Below, piece by piece: positions 46,258 to 62,750 of a stretch of DNA of 64,000 bases. The notes under the pieces were generated by a model that saw only the letters and a list, made by a program, of their open reading frames with translations, did not search any database and had not been told where the DNA came from. How positions within the stretch are numbered: the first letter of the stretch is position 1; the number at the start of each line of letters is the position of its first letter. Made by a program: the position numbers and the translations under genes. Origin of the DNA: Ditylenchus dipsaci (Eukaryota; Nematoda; Chromadorea; Rhabditida; Anguinidae); NCBI GenBank assembly GCA_004194705.1, contig SADC01000306.1, positions 1-64,000 on the forward strand. Direction: 5' to 3'.

Positions 46258-49200
46258 ATGGCATCTTCTACTACTGCAGCCGCTGCTTCGTCGACATTGG
46301 ATGGAGTGGGTGGACAGCAGCAAGTGATCACAACCGAAGTCCCAGAAATTCTCAAAAGGCTGACGTTGTTGATTGTCAAGTCTTTCTATAGCAAAGAGCA
46401 TTGCGTAGTGGCTGATTACATCCAAAGGAATGTGTGCGTCAAAGAAGACAAGCTGCGCGAATTTCTGAAAGTCGACCAAAAATATCTCAGACAGCTGCTC
46501 ATCACGCTCAAGGTAATTTTTTGCATCGGATGTGGCCATGGAAAATGTTTAAGATGGTCAGGGTTAAAAAAGTTGTAAAACGAGCAGAAACCATATTGTT
46601 ATCTAAATTATCTAAAAGTTATCTAAAAAGTAGGCAGAAAACTTTCGTCTGATCAAGTAGAACGCTTATATTAATCAGTCACGAGAAAAAAAATTGATGG
46701 TGCTCGTCTTAATTTTAGCGTAACGAGCTGGTATGCCCCTTTTGAGGCCATTGCCGTTTACGACAACGGTTGTCCCCCGCCAATTCATTTTTTTCTTAAT
46801 CGTTGGTTTTACGTGCGAATTTTTCAACTTAGTTCCTAATAAAACTACCATATTTCCTCTAATTTAGCCCCTTCCTCTAATTAAGCCCTCTCCCCTCTTT
46901 TTTGACTAGAACTTCAGAGTTAGGGCCATTTTTGATTTACAATTTCAAGATTTTTGGGCATCCAAAAAATTTAGCTACCGGGGCTAAATTACAGGAAATA
47001 CGGTATACCTAAAATCGAATTGTAGACCTTGTTTGGTTAGAAACTAAGCTGAAAAATCCGTTCAGAAGTTCAATGATTAGGCAAAAAAATTCGAATTGGC
47101 GGGGTGGGGTGTTGGAATTCTAAACAGGTGGCAATGACCATTTCTAGTTTTTTGAATTGGCGGAGGCAGCTAAAAATACGCAAAATGTTTGCTATAATGA
47201 TTTTTTATTTGGTTTTTATAGTCTATAATAATACCGTAAATGTTCTAATGGAGCCCCCTCTCTAATAGAGCCCCCCCCTCGATTTTTGACCAGGATTTCA
47301 GAGTTAGCACCATTTTTGATTGACAATTTCAAGATTTGTCAGGGGTTGAAAAATAAAGCCCCGGGGGCTCTATTAGAGCATTTACGGTACCTTATGGCTC
47401 GCTGGATGACGGCGAAGTGGTCCGATCTGGCATGCTCGAGCAACGTTGGGCTCGACTAGTAAAGGGTTCTATATTTTGAACAAATTTTAAATGCGGACAA
47501 AAACTAAATCGTCAAAGATTTCCGAAATTAAAGAGCTGTCACCCGAAAATTAAAAAAACTCGAAATCGCCATTGTCATCAACGGCGATGGTCCCTTAAAA
47601 TTTAAGTGCTGGATGTCATGGAAATTTAAGAGACTTTCTTTAACCACAACTTTTTATCGAAGCTTTTCAGATAAAAGTAGGAACTCAAAAAATTATTTTG
47701 ATTCAACGATGCAGCGAGTTGCGACGAGTTTTTGTAGTATATGTCGATAGTTCTAAAAAGCAATATTTTTGCTTGGTCCACTTTTAGGGTTTAGCCTATC
47801 CTGCCAGGGTGACCTAACAGTTTTATCCTTTTAAACTGTTTTTTGAAAAATTTTCGTCTCTTTTTCTGAAATTAGAGCAAGTCTCTCTGACGCCTTCCAA
47901 TTCTCAGTTAAGTAATTCAAAAAAATATCTTCATAAGCTGAATCAAACTGTGCAAACAGATTTCAAAAATACAATCTTGAAAAAAATATGGACAGAAGAA
48001 AGTCTGAAAAATTATTGGGACATCCTGAGTTTTACAACTGTGTTGCTTGATACTTTTAGTCAACCTTATTTTATTTGTAGGTGGACAAAATAGTCAAAGA
48101 AAGAACAGTGTCAGAAGAAGGTGGAGGACCACGTCCTCGAAAATTCAACTACTACTTCATCAACTACAAAGCTATGCTGAACGTCGCCAGATACAAGTTT
48201 CATCACATGCGCACTAAACTGGAGGGTCGTGAGAAGAGTGATGTCCAAAAGTCGACCTACCGCTGCACCAACAACAACTGCAAAAAGAACTACGATGTTA
48301 TGGATATTGGCAAGATCTACGACATGAATACCGGCGAAATGAAGTACAGTATTTTGAAAATTAAAGGAGTGGGGCATTTACGGCCACCTTTTGACATTCC
48401 TATTATATCCTGGTTTTTATTTTTGGGTGTTGGCAGTGCAACCATCTAGTGGCTGCAGACGAAACAGCTGGACCATCCGAAGCTACCCGTTCTTCCATGG
48501 CCAAATTTAATGAGCAGACTTCGGGCATGTTCAGCATTCTGCAGTCTCTGGATGGAATTCGGTTTTCGCGTGAAATTCTCGAGCCACCGATTGCTGAGCC
48601 TGCGAAGGATGAGCAACTGGCGAATCAGAAAGTTGTCAGGGTTAGTCCTCTATTTGTTATTAATAGATCATTTCGTTAATTACTGCTGATTTCCAGGTTG
48701 GCGAGCGGGCCTTCAATGCTTCAGGCAAAACAAGAAGTGAATTATACAGCGGTGGCATTACTGTCTCTATTGGCGATCAAGTGGAGCGTCTGCCAGAAGC
48801 GAAGGAGGCTGTTCCGTGGTTACAAAACAATCAACATCAGGGTGGTGGTGGTTCCACCAATTTGCTTCTCAACGGTGGGTGCTTTTAGTGTCTCCTCGGT
48901 TTCTAATGACTGTTTTATTTACAGACCCGAATGTCGTCATGGATTTCTCACCTTTGCCATCAGCTGCTATCGATTCGTTTGGTGCTTCAATTCCTTCCTC
49001 TTCAGTACGTGATACAGATGGACCAGCCGAGAAAAGGCCGAAACAAGATGATATTGCTGCCATGCTGATGGAGGAGGAAGAAGGATCTTCTTTGCAAGTT
49101 AACCAAGACGGATCAACCAAACAGTCAAATGGCGCAGGTCTGTTTGAATCAATTTTTTGAATCTATATTTCTATTTACCTGTTTTAACTTTTTCAGTTGA

Positions 49201-49366
49201 AGACGCGGATGAAACAGGGACTACTCAGGCAGATGAAGACTATGTGATGGTTCAAGGCGAGAAAGTGCCAGCTGATGAAATCACTCCGGAAATAATAGCG
49301 AAGATGACACCAAGTGAAAAGGAAGCTTATATCAACAGTGTGCAAAACTCTTACGATTTTTACTGA
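46258..49366 (+). CDS. GTF2E1: TFIIE large (alpha) subunit
   Basis: Six exons: 46258-46512, 48081-48368, 48437-48640, 48697-48874, 48925-49137, 49197-49366. They sum to 436 codons in one frame, so 435 residues against about 439 in man. The N-terminal winged helix reads VPEILKRLTLLIVKSFYS and QLLITLK. Then RKFNYYFINYKAMLNVARYK, a zinc-ribbon half (YRCTNNNC), DVMDIGKIYDMNTGEMKY, AKFNEQTSGMF and REILEP. The acidic C-terminus ends KMTPSEKEAYINSVQ, as in other animals. TFIIE-alpha recruits and stimulates TFIIH at RNA polymerase II promoters. Only one cysteine (CNHL) is seen where the ribbon needs a second CxxC, and the exon 2 donor (GGA|GTGGGG) is weak, so that junction may be wrong. Intron 1 (1568 bp) is stuffed with MITEs. 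AATAAA is at 49394. Confidence 0.92.
46725..47160. mobile_element. ATTGGCGGGGGAC-family MITE with nested TACCGTATTT copy
   Basis: GTTGTCCCCCGCCAATTC near 46770 pairs with GAATTGGCGGGG near 47092. The inner copy at about 46848-47009 has the ends TACCATATTTCCTCTAATT and AGGAAATACGGTA. Both lie in TFIIE intron 1. Confidence 0.6.
47232..47392. mobile_element. TACCGTAAATGTTCTAATG-family MITE
   Basis: TACCGTAAATGTTCTAATG at the left, CTATTAGAGCATTTACGGTA at the right, TA target. A sister copy lies at 61336-61491. It is in TFIIE intron 1. Confidence 0.7.
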
Positions 49367-49499
49367 AGATCGATGGTTGTGCCAGGTGCAGAAAATAAAG
49401 TGTTATATAAATAATGTGTTTAGTTTATTAGTTTGGTGGTAGCGGGGTGGAGAAATACTTTTATGAATTGTATTATGGTGTCGGAATCATTTAATTCGG

Positions 49500-50660
49500 A
49501 TCAATTGAATTGTTGCCCCTAAAATCTGAATTCTTACCCCTTTTTTCTTTTTTTTCAGTAATCAATTGCCGAAAAAAGCAAAAAAGGGCCAATAATTCAG
49601 AGTTTAGGGGCAACAATTTAATTTGATTCTATTTAAATTTCAAATAAAAACTGAAATCTTGCCCCTTATTATAAAATGTAATTAAAATTTCATTTTTTTT
49701 GAAATTTGAAAAAGGGCAAGAAATAATTAAAAAGGGGTAAGAATTCGGGACACGGACATTTCACCGACGGGTCATTTCACCGTGTATATCGTTTCACCGT
49801 CTGTTGTCGTCGTCTTGTCGCTTCGAATAAATTTTGCCGGGAGCACAACAATTGACCCTCTGGACAATTGACCCGGGCCGATTGACCCCTCGTGGCTTTT
49901 TGAATATGTTCATCTTTAATCTGTTCATTTTTTTAAGTCCGATTTTGTATTTATTCATTTTTTCTGTGTTTTTTCTTTGAAAATCGATATTTACTATAAA
50001 TATAAAAATTTAGCAATCTGATGGATGCTAATATAGAGCTCGTATATAAAGAGTTAGCTCTTATCCCGGACCATGTACCCCAAAAGGGCCAGCCCTAATC
50101 CCGGATCATGTACCCCAAAGGGTCAGCGCTTATCCCGGACCATGTACCCACAAAGGAACTTCTTATTGAATTAGGTTTCCTGCCGAAGGCAAGCAGGTAG
50201 AAAATCTAGAAAAGTCAAAATTCTTGAGGGAAAGTGGTCAGATTGTGGTCAGATTGCTTAACTTTTATATTTTTAGTAAATATCGATGTTCAAAGAAAAA
50301 AAAAATTCAAAAAAGGCAATACAAAATCGGACTTAAAAAAATGAACAGATTAAAGATGACCATAGTCAAAAAGCCACGGGGGGTCAATCGGCCCGGGTCA
50401 ATTGTCCAGAGGGTCAATTGTCGCGGACCCGATTTTGCCTTCAAACGTTCATTTAATGAAGATAGTTTTCAACAGCTGAAATACGATATAGACGGTGAAA
50501 TAATACGGACGGTGAAATGATACAGACGGTGAAATGACCGTACGGTGAAAGGATACAGGCGGTGAAATGACCCGACGGTGAAAGGATACAGGCGGTGAAA
50601 TGACCCGGCGGTGAAATGACACGGACCCCAAGAATTTAGACTTTAGGGTCAACAATTCAA
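49500..50660. mobile_element. Three nested inverted-repeat elements
   Basis: Outer: GAATTGTTGCCCCTAAAATC near 49508 and its inverse near 50640. Middle: arrays of CATTTCACCGTC (49750-49800) and the inverse GACGGTGAAATGA (50490-50625). Inner: CAATTGACCCTCTGGACAATTG (49849 on) and its inverse (to about 50430). No coding content seen. Confidence 0.65.
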
Positions 50661-51573
50661 TTTGATCCATCTTATGAATAAGGACGTCTGGCAACGGGTA
50701 AACGACAAAATTCGCCCGACAAAAATTTGCCCGACATAATTTGCCCGCGAAAAAATTTGCCCGACATAATTTTCCTGGTATGTTTTGTTTTGGCACTTCA
50801 AAAGCATTTCTCAATTTTGGTTTGGTGCGTATCCGGTTATGAGTAATGAGTGCGTAGGTAATGAGTGCGACATTAATCAGTACGTCATTAAGGCCGTGTC
50901 TACAATTATACTTAGTTTTACTAAAACTGCTTGTGAATGGTTAATTTCACCGCCACAGTACTCCGAAAAACAGGCGACGGTAAATTCGCCCACACGTAAA
51001 TTTGCCCACAAATTTTTATTATTTCTAAGGAACAAAAAACAATACTTTCGAACCTAAAAGTGCGTGCTGAAAGCGGTTTGTTGAGATCAAAATCCTGTTT
51101 TAACTAATCAGAATCTCATTACTCTACGAAGCTACCTACTCCAAGGTGGTCGACCCAGAAATTTGGGAAATCATTGCGATCGAGCAGAAAAACAGTTCTG
51201 TCCGATGCCCTGAGTACGTTAGTAACAATAAAAAGTTGGTTTTTCTTAGCTAAATTTTCAGGCAGTACTCAAGTTGTCCAGATGGACGTCCACCTGAAGG
51301 ATGGGGACTTTCTGGGCTTCAAACGTGTTAATCAGTCAAAACCATGTTTTGCTCTTTACAAATCATTTTAGGCACCTACTTTTTATAAAAATAGTATAAT
51401 TTGCATGCCTATTCAGAACAGCTCCGCAAAATTTGGGGTCGATCACCTTGGAGTGGGTACCTCTCCAGAATATTGAGATTGTGATCAGTCAAAATAGGAT
51501 TTTGGTCTTAACAAACCGTTTTCAGCACGCAATTTTAGGTTGGATAGCATGATTTATTTATTCCTAAGATGTA

Positions 51574-52548
51574 ACGGGTGTCCAAAAAGTTCGGAGCGGA
51601 CTTTTAAGCTTAATTTTTGAAATGAAAATTATGCAATAAAAAAATTCCAAATATACAGTTTTGTTGCCCTGAGTCTCCTCTACAAAACCCTATATTTACT
51701 TTTTATTTTACTCAATAAAGTGACCACCATTGGCCGCAATACATTTACGGAGACGTTTTGGAAAACTGTTAATAGCATTTTGAATCATTTCTTGTGGAAT
51801 TGCGTCCCATTCACGGACCAAGGATTGCTTCAATGATGGAATGGAGTTGTGAGGCTGGGAGCAGGCCTTTGATTGAAGATATGGCCACGCAAAGTAATCC
51901 ATCACATTCCAGTCTGGTGAGTTGGGAGCCCAGTCTCCTTTGATGGCTGCATTTGGACCCCAATGAGAGTCAACCTTGATGAAATCCGGAAAATTTTGCT
52001 CAATCCAGTTCTGAGTATCAAGTGCACGATGCGACGGTGCTCCGTCTTGCTGGAAGGTTATCCTCTGTTGTTGCTGTGGATGGTCGGCCACTTCTTGCCC
52101 TATCATCATTGCTTCCTGCCTCTGCAAATCGCTTGATTGCCTTACTGACAGTTTGATGGGGAATGTTGAGGAGTCGAGAGATCTCCATAATTCCATTCCC
52201 TTCTTGATAAAGTCGCACAATTCCACTTCGTAAATCGGCCATTTTAAACAGAGAAATTAAATAAAATGTAAACAAAATGATTTGCCAAACGAAATGGATC
52301 AAAAGTTTAAAAACAAGGCTAGCAAACAAAAAAACAACACAAAGAAGCTGCTGCATGATTCATTTTTCTGTCCTTCTTTTCTTTGTCCCACTTTTACAGC
52401 CTAATTTCATCATAAAAGAAAAGTTGATAGCGCATTGGAAAGAGGAGACTCAGGGCAACAAAACTGTATATTTGGAATTTTTTTATTGCATAATTTTCAT
52501 TTCAAAAATTAAGCTTAAAAGTCCGCTCCGAACTTTTTGGACACCAGT
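51574..52548. mobile_element. Tc1/mariner element, 975 bp, internally deleted
   Basis: It has long inverted ends of about 105 bp (ACGGGTGTCCAAAAAGTTCG and its inverse), flanked by TA at 51572-51573 and 52549-52550. Confidence 0.88.
51708..52242 (-). pseudogene. Mariner transposase, deleted in the middle
   Basis: The start MADLRSGIVRLYQEGNGIME and the helix-turn-helix (RLLNIPHQTVSKAIKRF, SGRPSTAT) join after a loss of roughly 150 residues to FQQDGAPSHRAL, NSPDWNVMDYFAW and FPKRLRKCIAANGGHF. The first catalytic Asp is gone. The second and third Asp are 48 residues apart. It is related to the transposase at 42295-43383. Confidence 0.85.
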
Positions 52549-52686
52549 TACTAAAAATTCCGTGAAAATAATGTCGGGCAAACTTTTGTCGGGCAAATTT
52601 TGTCGCGGGAAAATTATGTCAGGCAAATTTTGTCGTGTACCCCTGGCAACACTTGACTTTGAATCCTTTTTTACACGATCGACAAT

Positions 52687-52830
52687 GTTTGTACAATGGA
52701 GCAATGGCTACTGGAAATGAAGACTTTGTCGTGCCGGATCAATACAAGTACTACCAATGTGGCGCAAACGAACCGGAATTGTTTTTACTCGGAGACTTTT
52801 TGTGCTTATATAAACTTTTAACTGAGGTGA
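52687..52830 (+). other. Possible orphan exon
   Basis: An open stretch (ATGNEDFVVPDQYKYYQCGA and LLGDFLCLYKLLTE) runs to a good donor GAG|GTGAGC near 52829. It lies between two transposons and has no recognised domain. It could be a 5' exon of the gene at 54312 or part of a lost gene. Confidence 0.3.
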
Positions 52831-52854
52831 GCATGTATTTTAACAGTAAAAATA

Positions 52855-53008
52855 ATTTTTCGGGGAAAGATCTTTTCGGGGAAAGGGCTTTTCGGGGAAA
52901 TGGTCTTTTCGGGGAAAAGGGCTTTTCGGGGAAAAGGTCTTTTCGGGGAAAAGGTCTTTTCGGGGAAAAGGGTCATTCGGGGAAAAGGGCTTTTCGGGGA
53001 AAAGGGGT
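52855..53008 (+). repeat. Tandem CTTTTCGGGGAAAAGG array
   Basis: About nine copies of a 15-18 bp self-complementary unit, followed by GGGGTGTACCC. Only one array is seen, so it may be one end of an element. From 53010 to 54010 there is a CCAGGTGGATATCCACC stretch and a short TTGCCAAATGTCG array (53553-53610), but no gene. Confidence 0.7.
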
Positions 53009-54011
53009 GTACCCTTTATTATTTATCAAAATCAAGTACTTATAACTGAAAATAACTGAAAATATAACTGAAAATTTATAACTGAAAATTTGTCGAAAGA
53101 ACTAAAAAAACTATCATCAAACCATCTTCAGAATGATCGAATTAATGCAGAAAATATGTTTTAGAATTTGAAAAGGTAAAAAATTTTGTTCCAAGCGGAC
53201 GTCCACTTGGTTTTGGGGTCCATGCTGGAGTCCAGCAGAATTGCAAATAATTTATAGAAAAACTGTAAAATCGCTATTTTAGTCTTTAGTTAATCGCAGT
53301 TGTGGTCCTAACAAACCCAAATCCTCACACAATTTTGAGTTAGAAAAAATGGGTTATTTATCATTTTTAAGAAATTTTAATTTTTCAGGCTCTCTAGGTG
53401 GATATCCACCTAACCAGGGGTGGGTCAAACCGCGATTTTAGCTTTAAGAGACACACTTTGCCGGGTTTGATCAGGTCATCCTCCAAAAAACCATGTCAGC
53501 AAAACACTGGTGAAGCCTCGTGAACAATATGGGTACCCAGAGTGGTGAGCATTGCCAAATATCGTTTTGGCAAATGTCGTTTTGCCAAATGTCGTTTTTG
53601 CCAAATGTCCCCTAGCCATGAAATATGTATAACTTTCAGTGTTGCTAATTATAACATCATAATAATCAGATATGAAATTTTTTTACAATAGCCGAGAGGA
53701 TTTTGGACGCTTGTGTCATATATACTCCCCCTTTTCCAAATCCACTTTTCTAGAAATGTCTGAAAACCATAAGCTAGCATCCGAACTGTGGAAAAGCACA
53801 ACAGCGTTGTGAATCTGAGTGTGGCTTCAGATTGCGACTCACTTATTACTATTTCATGTTCAATATACTATGTTCAATCGCAAATATCCCATTTCATACA
53901 AAATACGATCAATTTTCAAGTTTTGGCTATTACCGTGCATGGAGCGGTGTTTTCAAAACTAACACATCAACTTTGCTCACACTAACTTCCCATACCTTAC
54001 GTTGGGCAAAT

Positions 54012-54264
54012 TACGGTATTTCCTCTAATAAGCGCGCATGCGCGCTTATTTTTCAAACCCCGAAAATCTGAAAAATTTCCGGTCAATCTCGAAAATTTCG
54101 GGTGCTCAACCAAAATATAAAAAGTGGGATCGGTAGAGCTCGAGGGAGTTAAGAAAATGCATTAAACAGTTTTGCAGAAAATCTTCTGTGAGCCGAGATA
54201 TAGACCCTCAAAGTAGGGGTGCGCGCTTATTGGAGCATGCGCGCTTATTAGGGGAAATACGGTA
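54012..54264. mobile_element. TACCGTATTT-family MITE just upstream of the Argonaute-like gene
   Basis: TACGGTATTTCCTCTAATAAG at the left and TTATTAGGGGAAATACGGTA at the right, with GCGCGCATGCGCGC words near both ends. It ends 48 bp before the ATG at 54312. Confidence 0.7.
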
Positions 54265-54311
54265 TGCATGCTTTTAATGGCTGTATTGTTTAGTTATCAA
54301 GCGTTGAAAGA

Positions 54312-56866
54312 ATGTCTCTTATGCCGAAGCTGCATTGTGAAATAGATCCTACATACATGCAACTTTGCCAGCGCTATATACCAACCAACTTGAATTTCGT
54401 ATTGGATACGCTAAAAGGTACTGCTAAGAAAGCTCCCGAAGGAATCGCCTTGGCAAATTACGATGGTAATTTTTCTTTGTTAAAAATCTCTTCATTTTTG
54501 TTGGTTTCAGTAGTGCACTCGCCATTCTTCAAGTTGTATTTTGATATTCTCAAAGTCCATGACGTCAACAGAGAAGGGCGTTGCTTGAGTGAAAACTGGT
54601 TGTTGCAAAAGCAAGATTGTTGCGTGAATTCTGAGCAGCGTCGTGATATGTGTGTTGTTCTGGATGGTAAGCCTTCCTGTTGCTCTAATTATCTGGCATT
54701 AAAAACTTTTCAGGTATAGTACTCAAGACAAAAAAGAAGGACGGAATACTCAGGCATTTTCGTTTTCGAACTTTGTCAATCGATGGCGATCTTGTTAAAT
54801 CCACTGAACACGAAGAAGTCCATCGCCCAAGACCAATTTTGCTTTGTGACTCGCAAGTCGATTCGAACAATGTACTTTGCGTGATTCTACTGGTCGTTGA
54901 TGCTACAAGTTACAAGCTCTACAGTATGTGGCTTTCATTTTCATGTGTAAACTGACAGAAAAAAATATTCAGATACCATCAAGATAGGATGTGATATGAC
55001 AGTTGGAGTGACATCTCAAACTTTGCTCAAAAAGACAATCTTCAAGTTGCCTTACGAAACTCCAATGCAGAACTTTACCATAAGGAACATAATCATGAGG
55101 CTCAGTGCTAAAATGGGTGGTCAAATCAATCAGATCCGTACTTATCTTGAAAGGTTTCATAGATTCTATAATTCTTTTTATTTTATCTTTCTTTTAGCTG
55201 GGAGAAGTTCCTTAATCCAAACAAGTTGACTCTCTTTATTAGCGATAATGAGACGCATTTTCCGCAGAGCAATATGCAATTTCCGTCTATTAGTTCTTTG
55301 AAGGCTAATGTGGACATTGAAGCTAGCAAGTGAATAATAATTTTCAATTGCAAGTCAGTTTAAGAAATTGTTTAAGGTATGTTGCAAGTATGAAATTCCA
55401 AGTGAAGCGCTCTCAGTGGGTCAATGCCAACTCTCCAGTAGTCAAGTGAATCGTTTTTCTACATTTTGGTAAGGCTATTTTATCCAATTTGTTTCAGCAG
55501 AGGAATCGTGCTGCCTACGATTGATGATAGATCGATTGCGAAGGAGTATAGGAACCTGAGGGGACACAAGAAGGAATTCGAATTCTTAGTGTGTGCTCAA
55601 AATATAATAATAGTGAGTTTTTCAATCCTCTGTTTTTAGTTTTCTTTCTAGCAAACAGAGATATTACTCGAGAGCTTTTTTTAGTTTGCGGGCTTTTCTT
55701 TTCGAATGCAAGAACTATCGTCTATCCCAGCGAAAAAGAAGGATAACAATCCAGGTAGTAAATGCATTTGATTTTTTCTTAAAAGACCGCGCAGTGACAT
55801 GTGAAAAATTAATATTGGCGGGGGACACTTATCTTTCGTCCCGCACTATACTCTTTGGAGTTGTTCTAAATGACTCAATAGAGTATAGTGAGAGACCAAA
55901 GAGAACTGCCCCCACCAATTCAAATTTTGCACATACCGCTGCGCGCAAAAACCATGGTCTTTTAAAGACTCTTAATTGGTTTTATATGCTAACCTAGTTA
56001 ATTTAGACTATGTACCTGAAGTGTTAGGATACTCGAAAAACGAAAAGTTATTGATGTATGGTACAGCCAGAATCTTCATAGAATGTATGCAAGAGTACAG
56101 CAGAGAAGGCCTACCCGAATTTATGGTCTATGTGCTCTTTGATCCTACATTTCTGCTTGATGAAATTACGAAGACATTTGCTTCCTTTGTCCACTCAATC
56201 TATTATGTCGGTAAGGGGAAACCAGGCAGGCCACTAGATCACGTTAGAAACTATTTGAATAGAGGTAATAGTTCAAATGCAATTGTTTTTGCCTCTTAAA
56301 AGCCTTTTGTAATATTTCAAGATCGAACGCGTCCCTTGAGCGCCAAGAAACTTAGAATTGACGAGTTGTATCACAATCAGAAGTATTCAGCTCTTCCAAT
56401 TCGAACCAACCTATTTGAGAAGCAAGCCTTGTTGTATGAAACCTGCGTAATCCAGTTCTTTTGTGGAGGTGAGTACATTACTTTTACATAGATCAAGACA
56501 GACCTAGTGAAACCCGATAGTGTCTCGCATGATATTCAAACACACATTCAGAAGTGTGTGATTTCTGTGTGGTTAGAGTGTTTATCAATCGGTCAGCCGA
56601 TGATCCATTGCATGATCGTTTCGATTGAGCAGTGGACCAATGGTAACTAATACCCGGTTGATGGATGATGTGGCGATCGCTAAAATATTCGCGCGGCCAA
56701 GACCAATGTCAATTTGTACCTTTTTCACAAATTTTTAACTGTTACAGGTAGGAGGAATCAGTTGACTAACAAGCGCAGAGGCAACGATATATCCCAAATC
56801 GATCGCCTGGGGAGCACGCAAACTACGGGGCTTATTTGCTGGAAAATTATGCGTATCCTATTCTAA
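54312..56866 (+). CDS. Argonaute-like MID/PIWI protein joined to a LEM-3-type GIY-YIG nuclease
   Basis: Eleven exons: 54312-54465, 54511-54666, 54714-54923, 54973-55153, 55198-55329, 55377-55445, 55498-55612, 55685-55754, 55998-56264, 56322-56468, 56748-56866; 540 codons, one frame. Residues 1-175 resemble the Argonaute linker 2 and MID (TAKKAPEGIA, FFKLYFDILKVHD). Residues 175-300 resemble the first half of PIWI (GVTSQTLLKKTIFKLP, MRLSAKMGGQIN, LFISDNETH, KYVASMKFQV). N-terminal and PAZ domains and the later catalytic PIWI residues are missing. The usual first Asp aligns to Asn. Residues 400-515 are a GIY-YIG domain of the ANKLE1/LEM-3 kind (VYVLFDP, SIYYVGKGKPGRPLDH, EKQALLYE, LTNKRRG) with all expected catalytic positions. 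The extreme C-terminus probably shifts frame. A MITE lies in the intron before the nuclease exons. Two adjacent genes remain possible. Confidence 0.62.
55809..55969. mobile_element. MITE in the intron between the PIWI-like and GIY-YIG exons
   Basis: It contains ATTGGCGGGGGACAC and, near the right end, AACCATGGTCTTTTAA, as in the CCAR1 intron copy near 19090-19290. The inner part carries the inverted words ACTATACTCTTTGG. It enlarges the intron 55755-55997. Confidence 0.6.
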
Positions 56867-57237
56867 GCGGCACAATAGTGCGTTATACTCCAATATTTAT
56901 GTTCGGGTAGGTAACTGATTTTTTCTAAGTCTGCCTCAATTATTTAAATAACCAGTGTTTACTGACTTTTTATCTTGATTTTTAGAGCTGCATTTGAACT
57001 CAAGAAGGGATTCCGATGAAGAGCTTGACGTATTTAAGATGACTTGTTTGTGCTTCAATGAATTATATGCGTTCGAATAAAGAGTATTTGCTTATTGTCG
57101 TTTCGTTTCAAAAACATTCGCGTTGGAATTGTGTGTTGTCATTTTTTTACGCATCTCTTAGGTATTCTAACACTTCTTATGTTTTTGTAGTTCATGACAC
57201 ACGTTTTACTTTTATAATAACGTTCTTATCGTATTAC
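56867..57237. other. 3' flank of the Argonaute/GIY-YIG gene
   Basis: Probably 3' untranslated sequence and AT-rich spacer. A second frame of the GIY-YIG tail (NYGAYLLENYAYPIL, as in the family) runs across 56800-56880, which suggests a one-base frame break near 56811. No other gene. Confidence 0.45.
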
Positions 57238-57838: not shown

Positions 57839-57989
57839 GTACCCAATACCTAGTACTCTAACTACTCAAAGGTACACTAACCAGATATAGAGTACAGCAA
57901 CTTTTGAAAACACATATTCTGACCAAACTAGTGGCGCCAGTGTGGCCGCTTAAACTCTTAATCTGTATACGACCCAAGTGTCTAAATAA

Positions 57990-58916
57990 CGTTACCACGC
58001 ATTTGGGCACACCGCATTTGGGCACCCGCATTTGGGCACCCGCATTTGGGCACACCGCATTTGGGCCCCCGCATTTGGGCACCCGCATTTGGGCACACCG
58101 CATTTGGGCCCCGATTTTAAAATTCCATATTTATAAATTATAAATTGAAATTTGTCAATTTTTCACTGTTTTATTCAGTTTCTCTCACTGCGCGTGCTAT
58201 TGTTGCTTCTGTCGGTAAGTGTCTTAATGCAGTTCTGACAAATGGAACCCACCGATTAGAGAAACATGTATGTGCTTATATTTTTATATGCATCCAGGAA
58301 GGATGTCAATCCCTGGGGACCGGTCTCAAGGTGCCAGATATACAAGGTGTCGAATAACTGGAGTGCCAGTTGACAGAGAATAAGTCAATCTCAGTCAGAT
58401 GAATTCAAATCAGGCACAGAGTGCCAGATAGTCGCGAGTGTCGGATAACTGAAGTACCGGATAACCGAAGTTCGACTGTTGTAATTTAAGCGAGTTGAAC
58501 GTTTAGCTAGTCGTGGAGTCACTTTTGACTGATTTATGTCTTAAGTATGTATGTGTGCTCATTTTAACATAAATCCAACAAGCATCATGTGACCCGAAGG
58601 GGCAAGCTACTTATGAGCAAGGCTTTTGATCGCAAATGCATATAGGGGCCTTTTTTGCATGACTCTAGTGACCGAAACAGGGTAGAACAGGGCCTTTAAA
58701 CTAAACGTTTACACACTTTCGGTCGAAAATTTGAATGAGGCACCTATAGGACCTGAAATGAATACAAATTTATTATAAAACAGTAACATATTGATAAATT
58801 TCAATTTATAATTTCAAAATATGGAACTTTAAAATCGGGGCCCAAATGCGGTGCCCAAATGCGGGGGCCAAATGCGGGTGCCCAAATGCGGTGTGCCCAA
58901 ATGCGTAGTAACCCTA
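57990..58916. mobile_element. Element with CCGCATTTGGGCACC arrays at both ends
   Basis: Seven copies of CGCATTTGGGC at 57999-58112 face five inverted copies at 58835-58910. The next 35 bp on the inside of each array are also inverted copies. The interior (58145-58800) has no recognisable gene. Near 58470-58482 it holds GGATAACCGAAGTTCGACTG, the end of a Tigger-like element. Confidence 0.7.
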
Positions 58917-59949: not shown

Positions 59950-62554
59950 ATGAGTGCACGAATGACTGAGTATATCCTTGAAGATGTCCTATCCTTCTTG
60001 CCTAGAATCTGGGTTGCCAGAAACATGGAAGGCATGAGTTCAGGAGTCCAGCAAGTTATTCAATCCCATCTCAAAACCTTGCATGTTTTCCCCGAACTAA
60101 TTATCAAGCCGAAAAACGGCATTCTGGGCAGTGTAAGTCTACTTTTTCAGTAATTATTGCTTTTAAATCAACATTTACAGCTGGAAAAGGAAGACCTCTA
60201 CATTGGACAAAAAGAACTTTTTATGTGTGGATCAGTACCCAAATGTGTTCGCTTCCAGATGGTCACCCTCTCTTGTGGTGTGACTTTAGCCAGTGAGGAA
60301 ATCTGGGAGTTTTTGCGACTCAACAAGCATGCTTTTGTGGGTTGTCATCTGGCTTTTGGGCGAATCGCTAATCTTTTCCTTCCCAAGCTGGACCTTCTGT
60401 TCAGTGATATTTTTGACCAGTGCTCGAGAATAGTGTTGCTCTGGCCATATGATGGACCGGAATGGGACAGGTGTGGATATCGGCACTAGTAAAGAATCCT
60501 TGTCCAAAATATGCCTTGGTCCCCCCTGTTGTTTTTTGAATGGATTTGACTGCCCTGGGCAGTGAGTTTTGTGAATGGCACAAGCTGTTTTTCACAAAAC
60601 AACAGGGTGGACCAAGGCATATTTTGGACAAGGATTCTTTACTAGTGCCGTGGATATCTACCGCTCATTTTCCGAACAATATAGAAGACTTTTTTAGAGA
60701 ATTACTGGGCAATGAAAGCAACTACCGAAAATTGTTCAAGCAGATGGCGTTTCTACTGTGTGATGAGGTGGATTACAATGCTGTGTATGTACATGAAATC
60801 GTCGACTGGATTGGTTTTGGGATTGCGAACGATCGGCCAAGACGTCTTTTCTTTGGACTACCAACCCATTGTTTGGAGTTTATGCTGAATCCTGTGCATC
60901 AGGTTCTTTTTTGTATTTTAACATATAAAAATTGGGGTATCGACGTTAGGTACCATTCTGCAACTACCCTTTGTTCGGTTAACTTAGGCCTAGGCGTAAA
61001 CCAGCGTATATTAGGACGGACTAATAAATGCCTTACGCAATTTTTCGGGCTAATCTAGGACTGGGACTAATATTTGAGTGCTTTTTATGAGGTTTTATAA
61101 AAAAAGAGATTTGGGACAAAATTGAACAAAAGATATATAACGTCAACACACCTTAAATCTGTACAACTTTTACATTTTGTCAGGTATCTGATATGTTTTT
61201 TACGTTAAAAAAATTTTTTGTTGCCACCAGGATTTGAGTTAAACGTGGAAAAACGCGGAAAGCGTTAAAGGAGGACAGACTTTAGGGAGGTGGAGGTGGC
61301 GAGATTTTGACTATAAAACGGAATTTTGCGAGCTTACCGTAAATGTTCTAATAGAGGCCCCCTCTCTAATAGACCCCCCCCCCTATTTTTTACTAAGATA
61401 TCAGAGCTAAGGCAATTTTTGATTGACAATTTCCAGATTTTTGGGGATCGAAAAATTTAGCCCCCGGGGGCTCTATTAGGGCATTTACGGTAGGTTAATT
61501 TTATTTTCAACCCTTAATTTTTTTACACTAATCAAAATTATCATGAATCCACCCGACAAAAAACACAAACTGTTTCAAAACTCGCGTTTTTATAAGTGCA
61601 CCAGTAAATATGATTATGTACAAGTTTATACTCGAAATGACAATAGAATGCAGGAATACATTTTGAGTACAAGGTTGCATATGACTGTGCCTGCGAAATT
61701 TGCGAAAAAAAACCCAATTTTTTAAAAATTTCGAAAATTTCCCGTAAGTCTGGACTTTTTTCAGAATTTTTGTTTTTTCGCAAAGTCATATACAACCTCA
61801 TACTCAAAATGTAGCCCTGCTTTCTAGTGTCATTTTGAGTATGAACTTGTATGTAACTATGTCCAGAACATTGATAAAGACGTGAGTTTTGAAAGAGTTC
61901 CGAAAACTACCAGCACTCTCCTGAATTGGGCTAGGGCAAATTTTTTCGAAATTATTTTTATCTCGAAACTTCGATCTGGTGTGTTTTTTGTCGGGTGGAT
62001 TGATGTTAATAACGATTGGTGTAAAAAATCAGTGGTTAAAAATAAAGATTAAATCAGCTTAAGCTCGCGAAATTCCATTTTCTAGTCAAAATCCACCCCC
62101 CCCCCTAAAGTCTGTCCTCCTTCAAAATGTCTAGAATTATTTAAAAAATCCAGTACTACGGTGGGCACTTGTAGCTGGGCGCCGGTACAAACAGGGTATC
62201 GGTCGCCGGTGACGCCGCCAGGCGGCATTGCAGGTATGTCTATGAGGTGCTCTATGAAGAGTATGAATCATGAAAATAAGGGCCAGTAATATGCATCTAA
62301 TATAAATATCTCCCTTTCAGTGGTGCCTTGATTCCAACTACAAAAATGTGGACTTCAAAATCTACTACAACTCTCGACTTGGCAACTGCTCTTTTGATAT
62401 AGTCAAAAAAGAAAATAGTGCAGATGTTCCCAGAAGTAATTGCCCTGCCAACTGTGCTCAGAGAATCATGACAAATATATGCTCCTACCCCAACCAATAT
62501 GAAATCACCAACTTCTCTCATACCGAATGTGTATACAATCCAGAAGTCATTTAA
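59950..62554 (+). CDS. Unrecognised 303-residue protein, possible F-box-like start
   Basis: Four exons: 59950-60132, 60181-60470, 60698-60902, 62321-62554; 304 codons in one frame. The first 40 residues (EYILEDVLSFLPRIWVARNM) loosely recall an F-box (L..VLSFLP) but lack most conserved positions. The rest (LEKEDLYIGQKELF, EIWEFLRLNKHAFVGCHLAF, LCDEVDYNAVYVHEIVDWIG, KNVDFKIYYNSR) matches no family I know. The layout recalls the large, fast-evolving F-box families of nematodes, where a C-terminal domain binds substrates; that is inference. A TTTTTCAG lies 31 nt before the ATG. Intron 2 was about 58 nt before a MITE entered it. Intron 3 holds about 860 bp of repeats. Confidence 0.65.
60482..60649. 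mobile_element. 168-bp MITE with 9-bp duplication in an intron
   Basis: Inverted ends GGCACTAGTAAAGAATCC, about 50 bp long, with exact duplication GTGGATATC at 60473-60481 and 60650-60658. Removing it restores a normal GT-AG intron (60471-60697) that keeps the frame. Confidence 0.85.
61265..62128. mobile_element. GGAGGACAGACTTTAGGG element with two nested elements
   Basis: The outer pair AAGGAGGACAGACTTTAGGG is inverted near 62125. Inside are a TACCGTAAATGTTCTAATAG MITE (61336-61491) and an inverted pair AATCCACCCGACAAAAAACAC (61546 and about 62003). It lies in intron 3 of the 59950 gene. Confidence 0.65.
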
Positions 62555-62750
62555 TCACTTTTTTTGTTTCTCTGAAATGTCCGGAATAAAATATTCAGTG
62601 ACTGAAACCGAAAGTTTCATGAGTATAAACCGAAACCGAAAACCGAATTTCGGTTCCCGTTTCGGTTTTTTGGAAACACTGGTAGAGAGTAGTGTTTTAC
62701 GACAAAAAATTCAATAAAATTGATTTACGTGTTTTTACATATGTTTGACA

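What the first reader, a model, noticed from the sequence alone, without database searches (positions are those of the whole stretch)
54312..56866. Candidate Argonaute::GIY-YIG nuclease fusion gene
Seen: eleven consecutive GT-AG exons keep one open frame of 540 codons. The first seven read like linker 2, MID and the first half of PIWI. The last three read like a complete LEM-3/ANKLE1-type GIY-YIG domain with its Tyr, Gly, Arg, His, Glu and Asn positions. Known: Argonautes use PIWI (DEDH) to cut, and many nematode Argonautes have lost that chemistry; LEM-3/ANKLE1 are structure-selective DNA nucleases. I know of no eukaryotic Argonaute joined to a GIY-YIG domain. Inference: a guide-binding half with its own slicer missing may have gained a nuclease of another family, perhaps for transposon or DNA control in this repeat-rich genome.
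Basis: partly seen in the sequence, partly recalled or inferred. Interest (0 to 1): 0.92.

Follow-up and report, generated by a model that had tools for sequence, protein, structure and literature searches.

The report
Argonaute remnant joined to nuclease gene
In a plant-parasitic roundworm, broken-down pieces of an RNA-guided silencing gene sit just upstream of, and can be read as one protein with, a DNA-cutting enzyme gene; the pairing is real in the assembled sequence, but the silencing part has lost most of what it would need to work.

Summary
UniRef labels point to Ditylenchus dipsaci; two automatic gene models there already carry the same join. But the Argonaute half is a scrap: against an intact-looking relative (P0003) only about 241-360, 415-435, 585-702 and 787-827 remain; the N domain, most of PAZ, linker 2, half of MID and much of PIWI are gone, and the first slicer Asp is Asn. 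The GIY half keeps active-site residues, but its last exon departs in frame from its relatives after the Asn. One more locus (C1251) clearly, and one (C1247) weakly, carry other Argonaute remains upstream of the same GIY clade (support 0.992, 18 segments). GIY exons show purifying selection; substitutions in the Argonaute exons fit neutrality, though they have no frame-breaking indel. The halves have different ages. Best reading: a small chimeric family in which decaying Argonaute 5' exons lead into a LEM-3-type nuclease gene. A working guided nuclease is unlikely, not excluded; transcripts decide.

The parts
54012..54264 (.). MITE-like element with 30-base inverted repeats just upstream of exon 1
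   Evidence: arms 54012-54041 and 54235-54264, 93%. No match of P0003 1-240 in window 48000-54311 (E up to 1) beyond exon 1 itself
54312..54465 (+). exon 1: Argonaute-derived, P0003 241-274; its ATG corresponds to an internal Met of P0003
54511..54666 (+). exon 2: Argonaute-derived, P0003 about 275-327
54714..54923 (+). exon 3: three non-adjacent Argonaute pieces in one exon (P0003 about 327-360, 415-435, from about 585), ending with the pocket Tyr (Y173); the C1286 copy has 18 more bases here, in frame
54973..55153 (+). exon 4: second half of MID into PIWI; Lys and Gln of the 5'-phosphate pocket kept (K177, Q189 of P0001)
   Evidence: role of the residues recalled
55198..55329 (+). exon 5: PIWI; first catalytic Asp position is Asn (GIDVTH in P0003, SDNETH here)
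55377..55445 (+). exon 6: PIWI, P0003 686-702
55501..55612 (+). exon 7: later PIWI piece, P0003 about 787-827; P0003 703-786 (with the RDGVSE motif at 730-735) is missing between exons 6 and 7 (public model starts it at 55498)
55685..55754 (+). exon 8: bridging exon; resembles a stretch just upstream of GIY at C1251 (weak, E 0.24) and at C1247 (continuous in the alignment of P0004 with P0001), so it probably belongs to the nuclease module
55821..55913 (.). inverted repeat (MITE-like) inside intron 8
55998..56264 (+). exon 9: first part of the GIY-YIG domain (VYVLFDP, IYYVGKG, GRPLDH); true start probably about 56007
56322..56468 (+). exon 10: GIY-YIG domain, catalytic Glu (LLYE)
56748..56866 (+). 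exon 11: Asn (LTN), then the frame departs from relatives from about 56791; a conserved stretch (NYGAYLLENYAYP) is present in another frame, open to about 56908
57076..57081 (+). only AATAAA between 54312 and 57200, downstream of the GIY part (variants ATTAAA at 54698, AGTAAA at 55757, AATGAA at 57057)

Best explanation
A chimeric gene of Ditylenchus dipsaci: exons left over from a nematode Argonaute, a sister of the intact-looking Argonaute P0003 on contig C938, lead by splicing into a LEM-3/ANKLE1-type GIY-YIG nuclease gene whose own first exon is probably exon 8. Shown: the open frame, both homologies, the missing blocks, the related loci, the constraint on GIY exons, the different ages of the halves. 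Inferred: splicing across the join; that the Argonaute exons now serve as promoter, start codon and leader peptide of the nuclease and wear away under weak or no constraint; that any activity would be that of a GIY-YIG nuclease on branched DNA (Tyr, Tyr, His, Glu as in LEM-3/ANKLE1), not RNA-guided cutting. As no LEM domain was found and LEM-3 needs its LEM-like domain to cut well, activity may be low unless the leader helps to bind DNA. The window copy, or this assembly of it, has an altered C-terminus, so whether this copy is active is open.
For: Open frame and splice sites in two copies. Argonaute half reduced to four pieces of P0003. C1251 has Argonaute pieces in order (P0003 7-59, with two stops inside; 146-199; 177-239; 238-274) upstream of a GIY gene; C1247 has two weaker traces (E 2e-4; 0.002). 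The four Argonaute-linked GIY genes form one clade among 18 GIY segments of about 50 columns (support 0.992); at E <= 1e-3 only C305, C1286:546 kb and C1251:52 kb of 24 GIY loci show Argonaute within about 1.5 kb. Window against C1286 copy: GIY exons 9-10 have 17 of 22 differences at third positions (P = 3e-5), dN/dS 0.17; Argonaute exons 1-7 have 8/11/14 by position, dN/dS 0.40, not distinguishable from neutral (P = 0.14). Window against C938, 254 codons: dN/dS 0.37. Only AATAAA lies after the GIY part.
Against: The Argonaute exons have no frame-breaking indel in 1014 bases against 11 indels in 1671 noncoding bases (Fisher P = 0.009; 9 of the 11 lie at short runs of one base), and the deletion joints inside exon 3 keep the frame, so the Argonaute frame may still be selected. 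No transcript data. At C1251 the Argonaute-side frame and the GIY frame are one base out of step in this assembly. The GIY halves are far more diverged than the Argonaute halves, so one simple joint history does not fit without gene conversion or repeated joining. A variant poly(A) signal (AGTAAA, 55757) lies between the halves. LEM-3 without its LEM-like domain was almost entirely inactive in vitro (PMC11975286, passages).
Confidence: 0.6

Rival explanations
1. Two units: a dead Argonaute fragment that happens to lie upstream of a GIY-YIG gene transcribed from its own start; the fused frame is a gene-prediction product.
For: Neutral-like substitutions in the Argonaute exons; joined-looking gene models exist elsewhere (P0006, P0019, P0021, untested); exon 8 has an ATG in the window and in C1251; halves of different age; variant poly(A) signal in intron 8.
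Against: Exon phases match through all joins in the window; at C1247 the exon 8 equivalent has no ATG; no AATAAA between the halves; no frame-breaking indels in the Argonaute exons; linkage at three loci of one GIY clade, one of them weak.
Confidence: 0.25
2. A working Argonaute::GIY-YIG protein: the remaining MID-PIWI piece holds a guide or a partner and the GIY domain cuts DNA.
For: Pocket residues Y173, K177, Q189 of P0001 nearly invariant in 26 aligned sequences; open frame in both copies and no frame-breaking indel; active-site residues of GIY present.
Against: Most of PAZ, linker 2, half of MID and two blocks of PIWI missing; AlphaFold model of P0001 mean pLDDT 46.2, best in residues 161-300 (57-76), 52-60 in 61-100; no significant protein-level constraint; altered GIY C-terminus here and damaged exon 9 in the C1286 copy; no such protein found outside D. 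dipsaci.
Confidence: 0.1
3. Assembly artefact: the join comes from misassembly of heterozygous PacBio data.
For: Contigs from PacBio reads with Canu, then merged and scaffolded, 227 Mb against 160-170 Mb by flow cytometry (PMC6929663, whole text); the C1286 copy may be the other haplotype (colinear in pieces over 53.7-60.5 kb).
Against: The same join is on two contigs that differ upstream of 53.7 kb, and related joins lie on two more. Single-base differences could still be sequencing errors.
Confidence: 0.05

Closest known systems
LEM-3 / ANKLE1 GIY-YIG nucleases
   Same: Pfam LEM-3_GIY-YIG 4.7e-20; both Tyr, His, Glu, Asn at matching places (by eye)
   Different: no LEM domain or ankyrin repeats found by Pfam; Argonaute-derived N-terminus; C-terminus altered after the Asn
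Nematode Argonautes of the P0003 / P0005 group (D. dipsaci, D. destructor)
   Same: 56% identity (141 of 254 codons) to P0003 over the aligned kept pieces, 46-63% by exon
   Different: lacks the N domain, most of PAZ, linker 2, half of MID, much of PIWI; first catalytic Asp is Asn
UniRef A0A915DWX2 and A0A915DD48 (D. dipsaci automatic gene models)
   Same: the first is this locus (99%), the second (83%) fits the C1286 copy
   Different: predictions only; A0A915DD48 skips the damaged part of exon 9
A0A915EB94 (P0004, fits contig C1247)
   Same: 87 of 163 residues identical over the GIY domain and the bridging segment; a trace of the Argonaute N region
   Different: no PIWI found; long further C-terminal part that I did not identify

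Membership tests
Eukaryotic Argonaute | PIWI domain by profile | tested here: met
   Piwi 7.4e-9, but only profile 2-127 of 302
Eukaryotic Argonaute | N, PAZ and linker 2 domains | tested here: not met
   none found in P0001 by Pfam at E <= 0.1, all three found in P0003
Eukaryotic Argonaute | DEDH slicer residues | tested here: not met
   first Asp is Asn; the block with the second Asp and the end of PIWI are missing (the tetrad itself recalled)
Eukaryotic Argonaute | 5'-phosphate pocket Tyr/Lys/Gln of MID | tested here: met
   Y173, K177, Q189 nearly invariant in 26 sequences (roles recalled); half of MID is missing
LEM-3/ANKLE1 GIY-YIG nuclease | LEM-3_GIY-YIG profile | tested here: met
   4.7e-20, profile 3-122 of 151
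LEM-3/ANKLE1 GIY-YIG nuclease | active-site Tyr, Tyr, His, Glu, Asn (ANKLE1 Y453, Y486, H498, E551, N565) | tested here: met
   VYVLFDP, IYYVGKG, RPLDH, LLYE, LTN, placed by eye; residues from passages of PMC10287932. Lys519 not placed. PMC11975286 (passages) sees no core catalytic role for the Asn and Lys
LEM-3/ANKLE1 GIY-YIG nuclease | C-terminal stretch after the Asn | tested here: not met
   in another frame in the window; in frame at C1251 and C1247, and a similar stretch at C1285 and C882 (by eye)
LEM-3/ANKLE1 GIY-YIG nuclease | LEM domain or ankyrin repeats | tested here: not met
   no such Pfam match in P0001, P0002 or P0004 at E <= 0.1
Expressed fusion gene | transcript joining the two halves | not testable with these tools
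   no reads held

The most novel reading that the evidence does not exclude
A full-length Argonaute with a C-terminal LEM-3-type GIY-YIG nuclease once existed in the Ditylenchus lineage, founded the present clade of Argonaute-linked GIY genes, and the window gene is still translated as a trimmed MID-PIWI::GIY protein whose frame is being kept.
Probability: 0.13. Interest if true: 0.85.

Novelty: new variant of a known kind. Interest (0 to 1): 0.42.

Why it matters
If the joined transcript exists, it is a case of a silencing gene being broken up for parts by a DNA nuclease gene, at more than one locus of a genome, and it shows how chimeric genes form and decay. If the Argonaute part were still working, it would be the first eukaryotic Argonaute joined to a GIY-YIG nuclease that I know of (recalled; four full-text searches, of which only listings were seen, showed no such report by title or abstract).

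Tried and rejected
Idea that exon 1 belongs to the nuclease gene and that an Argonaute fragment was inserted in its first intron: proposed, dropped when P0003 showed exon 1 to be Argonaute. Two independent loci in window and C1286: left open, since the C1286 copy may be the other haplotype. One joint history by plain duplication: conflicts with the codon divergence. NG86 dS for the GIY pairs is saturated, so same-residue codons were compared instead. PDB search with the GIY half gave nothing. The AlphaFold model is too weak for a fold search, which was not run. In one search my end of the C1251 exon 9 is one base short, so its printed exon 10 is out of frame; exon 10 is read. One search tested 10 noncoding indels; a recount gave 11 and one search replaces that test.

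Full report
WHAT IS THERE. Pfam gives Piwi (7.4e-9, above its cut-off) and LEM-3_GIY-YIG (4.7e-20). The genome held for the window is 227 Mb in 1359 contigs, the window being C305:1-64000. A protein search (3 hits among 5125 candidates) returned two UniRef entries of Ditylenchus dipsaci, A0A915DWX2 (P0001, 99%) and A0A915DD48 (P0002, 83%), both with PF02171 and PF22945, plus an Argonaute, A0A915DUQ1 (P0003). So the joined gene model is already in public databases as a prediction. That alone is weak evidence: P0006, P0019 and P0021 of the 118 proteins look like Argonautes joined to something unrelated (not tested).

THE ARGONAUTE HALF. P0003 has ArgoN 106-215, PAZ 333-431, ArgoL2 443-485 and Piwi 614-841. 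The fused protein matches it only at about 241-360, 415-435, 585-702 and 787-827. Exon 3 alone holds three of these pieces. The first catalytic Asp is Asn, and the stretch with the second Asp and the end of PIWI are missing. Three residues of the 5'-phosphate pocket remain. No Argonaute N-terminal match was found in window 48000-54311; a MITE-like element with 30-base inverted repeats lies just upstream of exon 1. An AlphaFold model of P0001 with 26 sequences has mean pLDDT 46.2; the best part is residues 161-300 (blocks of 57-76), with 52-60 in 61-100.

THE NUCLEASE HALF. The motifs VYVLFDP, IYYVGKG, RPLDH, LLYE and LTN hold residues matching ANKLE1 Y453, Y486, H498, E551 and N565 (passages of PMC10287932; placed by eye). 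A later LEM-3 paper sees no core catalytic role for the Asn, and found the GIY-YIG part of LEM-3 alone almost entirely inactive in vitro (passages of PMC11975286); no LEM domain is found here. Shortly after LTN the window frame departs from its relatives; C1251 and C1247, and in similar form C1285 and C882, keep a conserved stretch there. The window differs in length by one base from the C1286 copy near 56791. The C1286 copy has the C-terminal stretch in frame (P0002) but a 26-base deletion, which removes the exon 9 acceptor used by P0001, and a one-base insertion in exon 9.

RELATED LOCI. The genome has at least 24 loci with this GIY domain (28 matches fall in 23 loci; one more, C1251:2.7 kb). 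At E <= 1e-3, 16 Argonaute queries against 48 locus records with about 1.5 kb flanks hit 15 records, from three loci: C305, C1286:546 kb and C1251:52 kb. C1247 has weaker Argonaute traces (E 2e-4; 0.002). Of 22 GIY segments extracted, 4 were too short; in a tree of the other 18 on about 50 columns the four Argonaute-linked ones form one clade with support 0.992. At C1251 four exons on the Argonaute side, 135 codons, run in one frame to the exon 8 equivalent, but that end is one base out of step with the GIY frame in this assembly, and the most upstream Argonaute piece there has two stops in the matched stretch.

SELECTION AND AGE. Window against the C1286 copy: exons 1-7, 33 differences, 8/11/14 by codon position, dN 0.025, dS 0.064; of 4000 simulated neutral sets 13.6% have as few replacements and 39.9% no stop. 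Exon 8: 3/2/2. Exons 9-10: 22 differences, 4/1/17, dN 0.030, dS 0.179, P = 0.0067. In exon 11 the differences fall 2/6/1 by position. Against this reading: exons 1-7 have no frame-breaking indel in 1014 bases and one 18-base in-frame indel, against 11 indels in 1671 noncoding bases (Fisher P = 0.009) and 3 in 533 bases of exons 9-11; 9 of the 11 lie at short runs of one base. Codons with the same amino acid differ in 43/63, 47/70 and 46/67 for GIY pairs (window, C1251, C1247) but in 16/72, 5/24, 4/18, 5/21 and 39/134 for Argonaute pairs (window, C1251, C938) (Fisher 1e-7 for 43/63 against 16/72). For the C1247 Argonaute trace the counts are 6/14 and 5/11, for the two Argonautes C938 and C1242 47/81. 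So the Argonaute parts of window, C1251 and C938 parted far more recently than the GIY parts. One clade of GIY suggests one joining event followed by gene conversion of the Argonaute part; repeated joining is the alternative. I cannot tell which.

CAVEATS. The genome paper (PMC6929663, read whole) reports contigs from PacBio reads with Canu at 42x, merged and scaffolded with other genomes and RNA-seq, with no short-read polishing mentioned; 227 Mb against 160-170 Mb by flow cytometry; 537 of 982 BUSCO genes complete. Haplotype copies and one-base errors are therefore likely, and both the C1286 copy and the one-base differences must be read with that in mind. Homology between C305 and C1286 runs in pieces from 53.7 to 60.5 kb and, at 84-88%, to about 62.6 kb.

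LITERATURE. Four searches of the open library (listings only) showed no report of an Argonaute::GIY-YIG protein by title or abstract. Absence from that library is not absence from print.

VERDICT. Most likely a nuclease gene led by decaying Argonaute exons.

Noticed in passing
G000, at least 24 loci: LEM-3/ANKLE1-type GIY-YIG domains are expanded in this nematode genome; the loci on C1285 and C882 score best and look like the LEM-3 orthologue and a close copy (by eye).
   Followed up: partly
window 51708-52256 (- strand): Open frame that reads like a Tc1/mariner-type transposase (recalled resemblance, not tested).
   Followed up: no
window 57985-58115: Tandem runs of a short unit around GCATTTGGGCACC (by eye).
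   Followed up: no
window 60500-62738; C305:76359-78552 (-), C1251:125992-128008 (+): A 2-kb stretch repeated at about 94%, inverted on the same contig and in direct orientation on C1251, so C305, C1251 and C1286 share duplicated blocks.
   Followed up: no
window 56867-57005: Only 1 of 139 bases differs from the C1286 copy, fewer than in exon 11 (9 of 119) and in 57006-57150 (5 of 144); an exon or a recent gene conversion.
   Followed up: no
P0006, P0019, P0021: Public nematode gene models that seem to join an Argonaute to unrelated proteins, two of them named as an oligosaccharyltransferase subunit; possibly merge errors.
   Followed up: no
C1251:2323-3136 against C1247:900986-901914: Near-copy with many small gaps close to a contig end (by eye), which looks like poor local assembly.
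   Followed up: no
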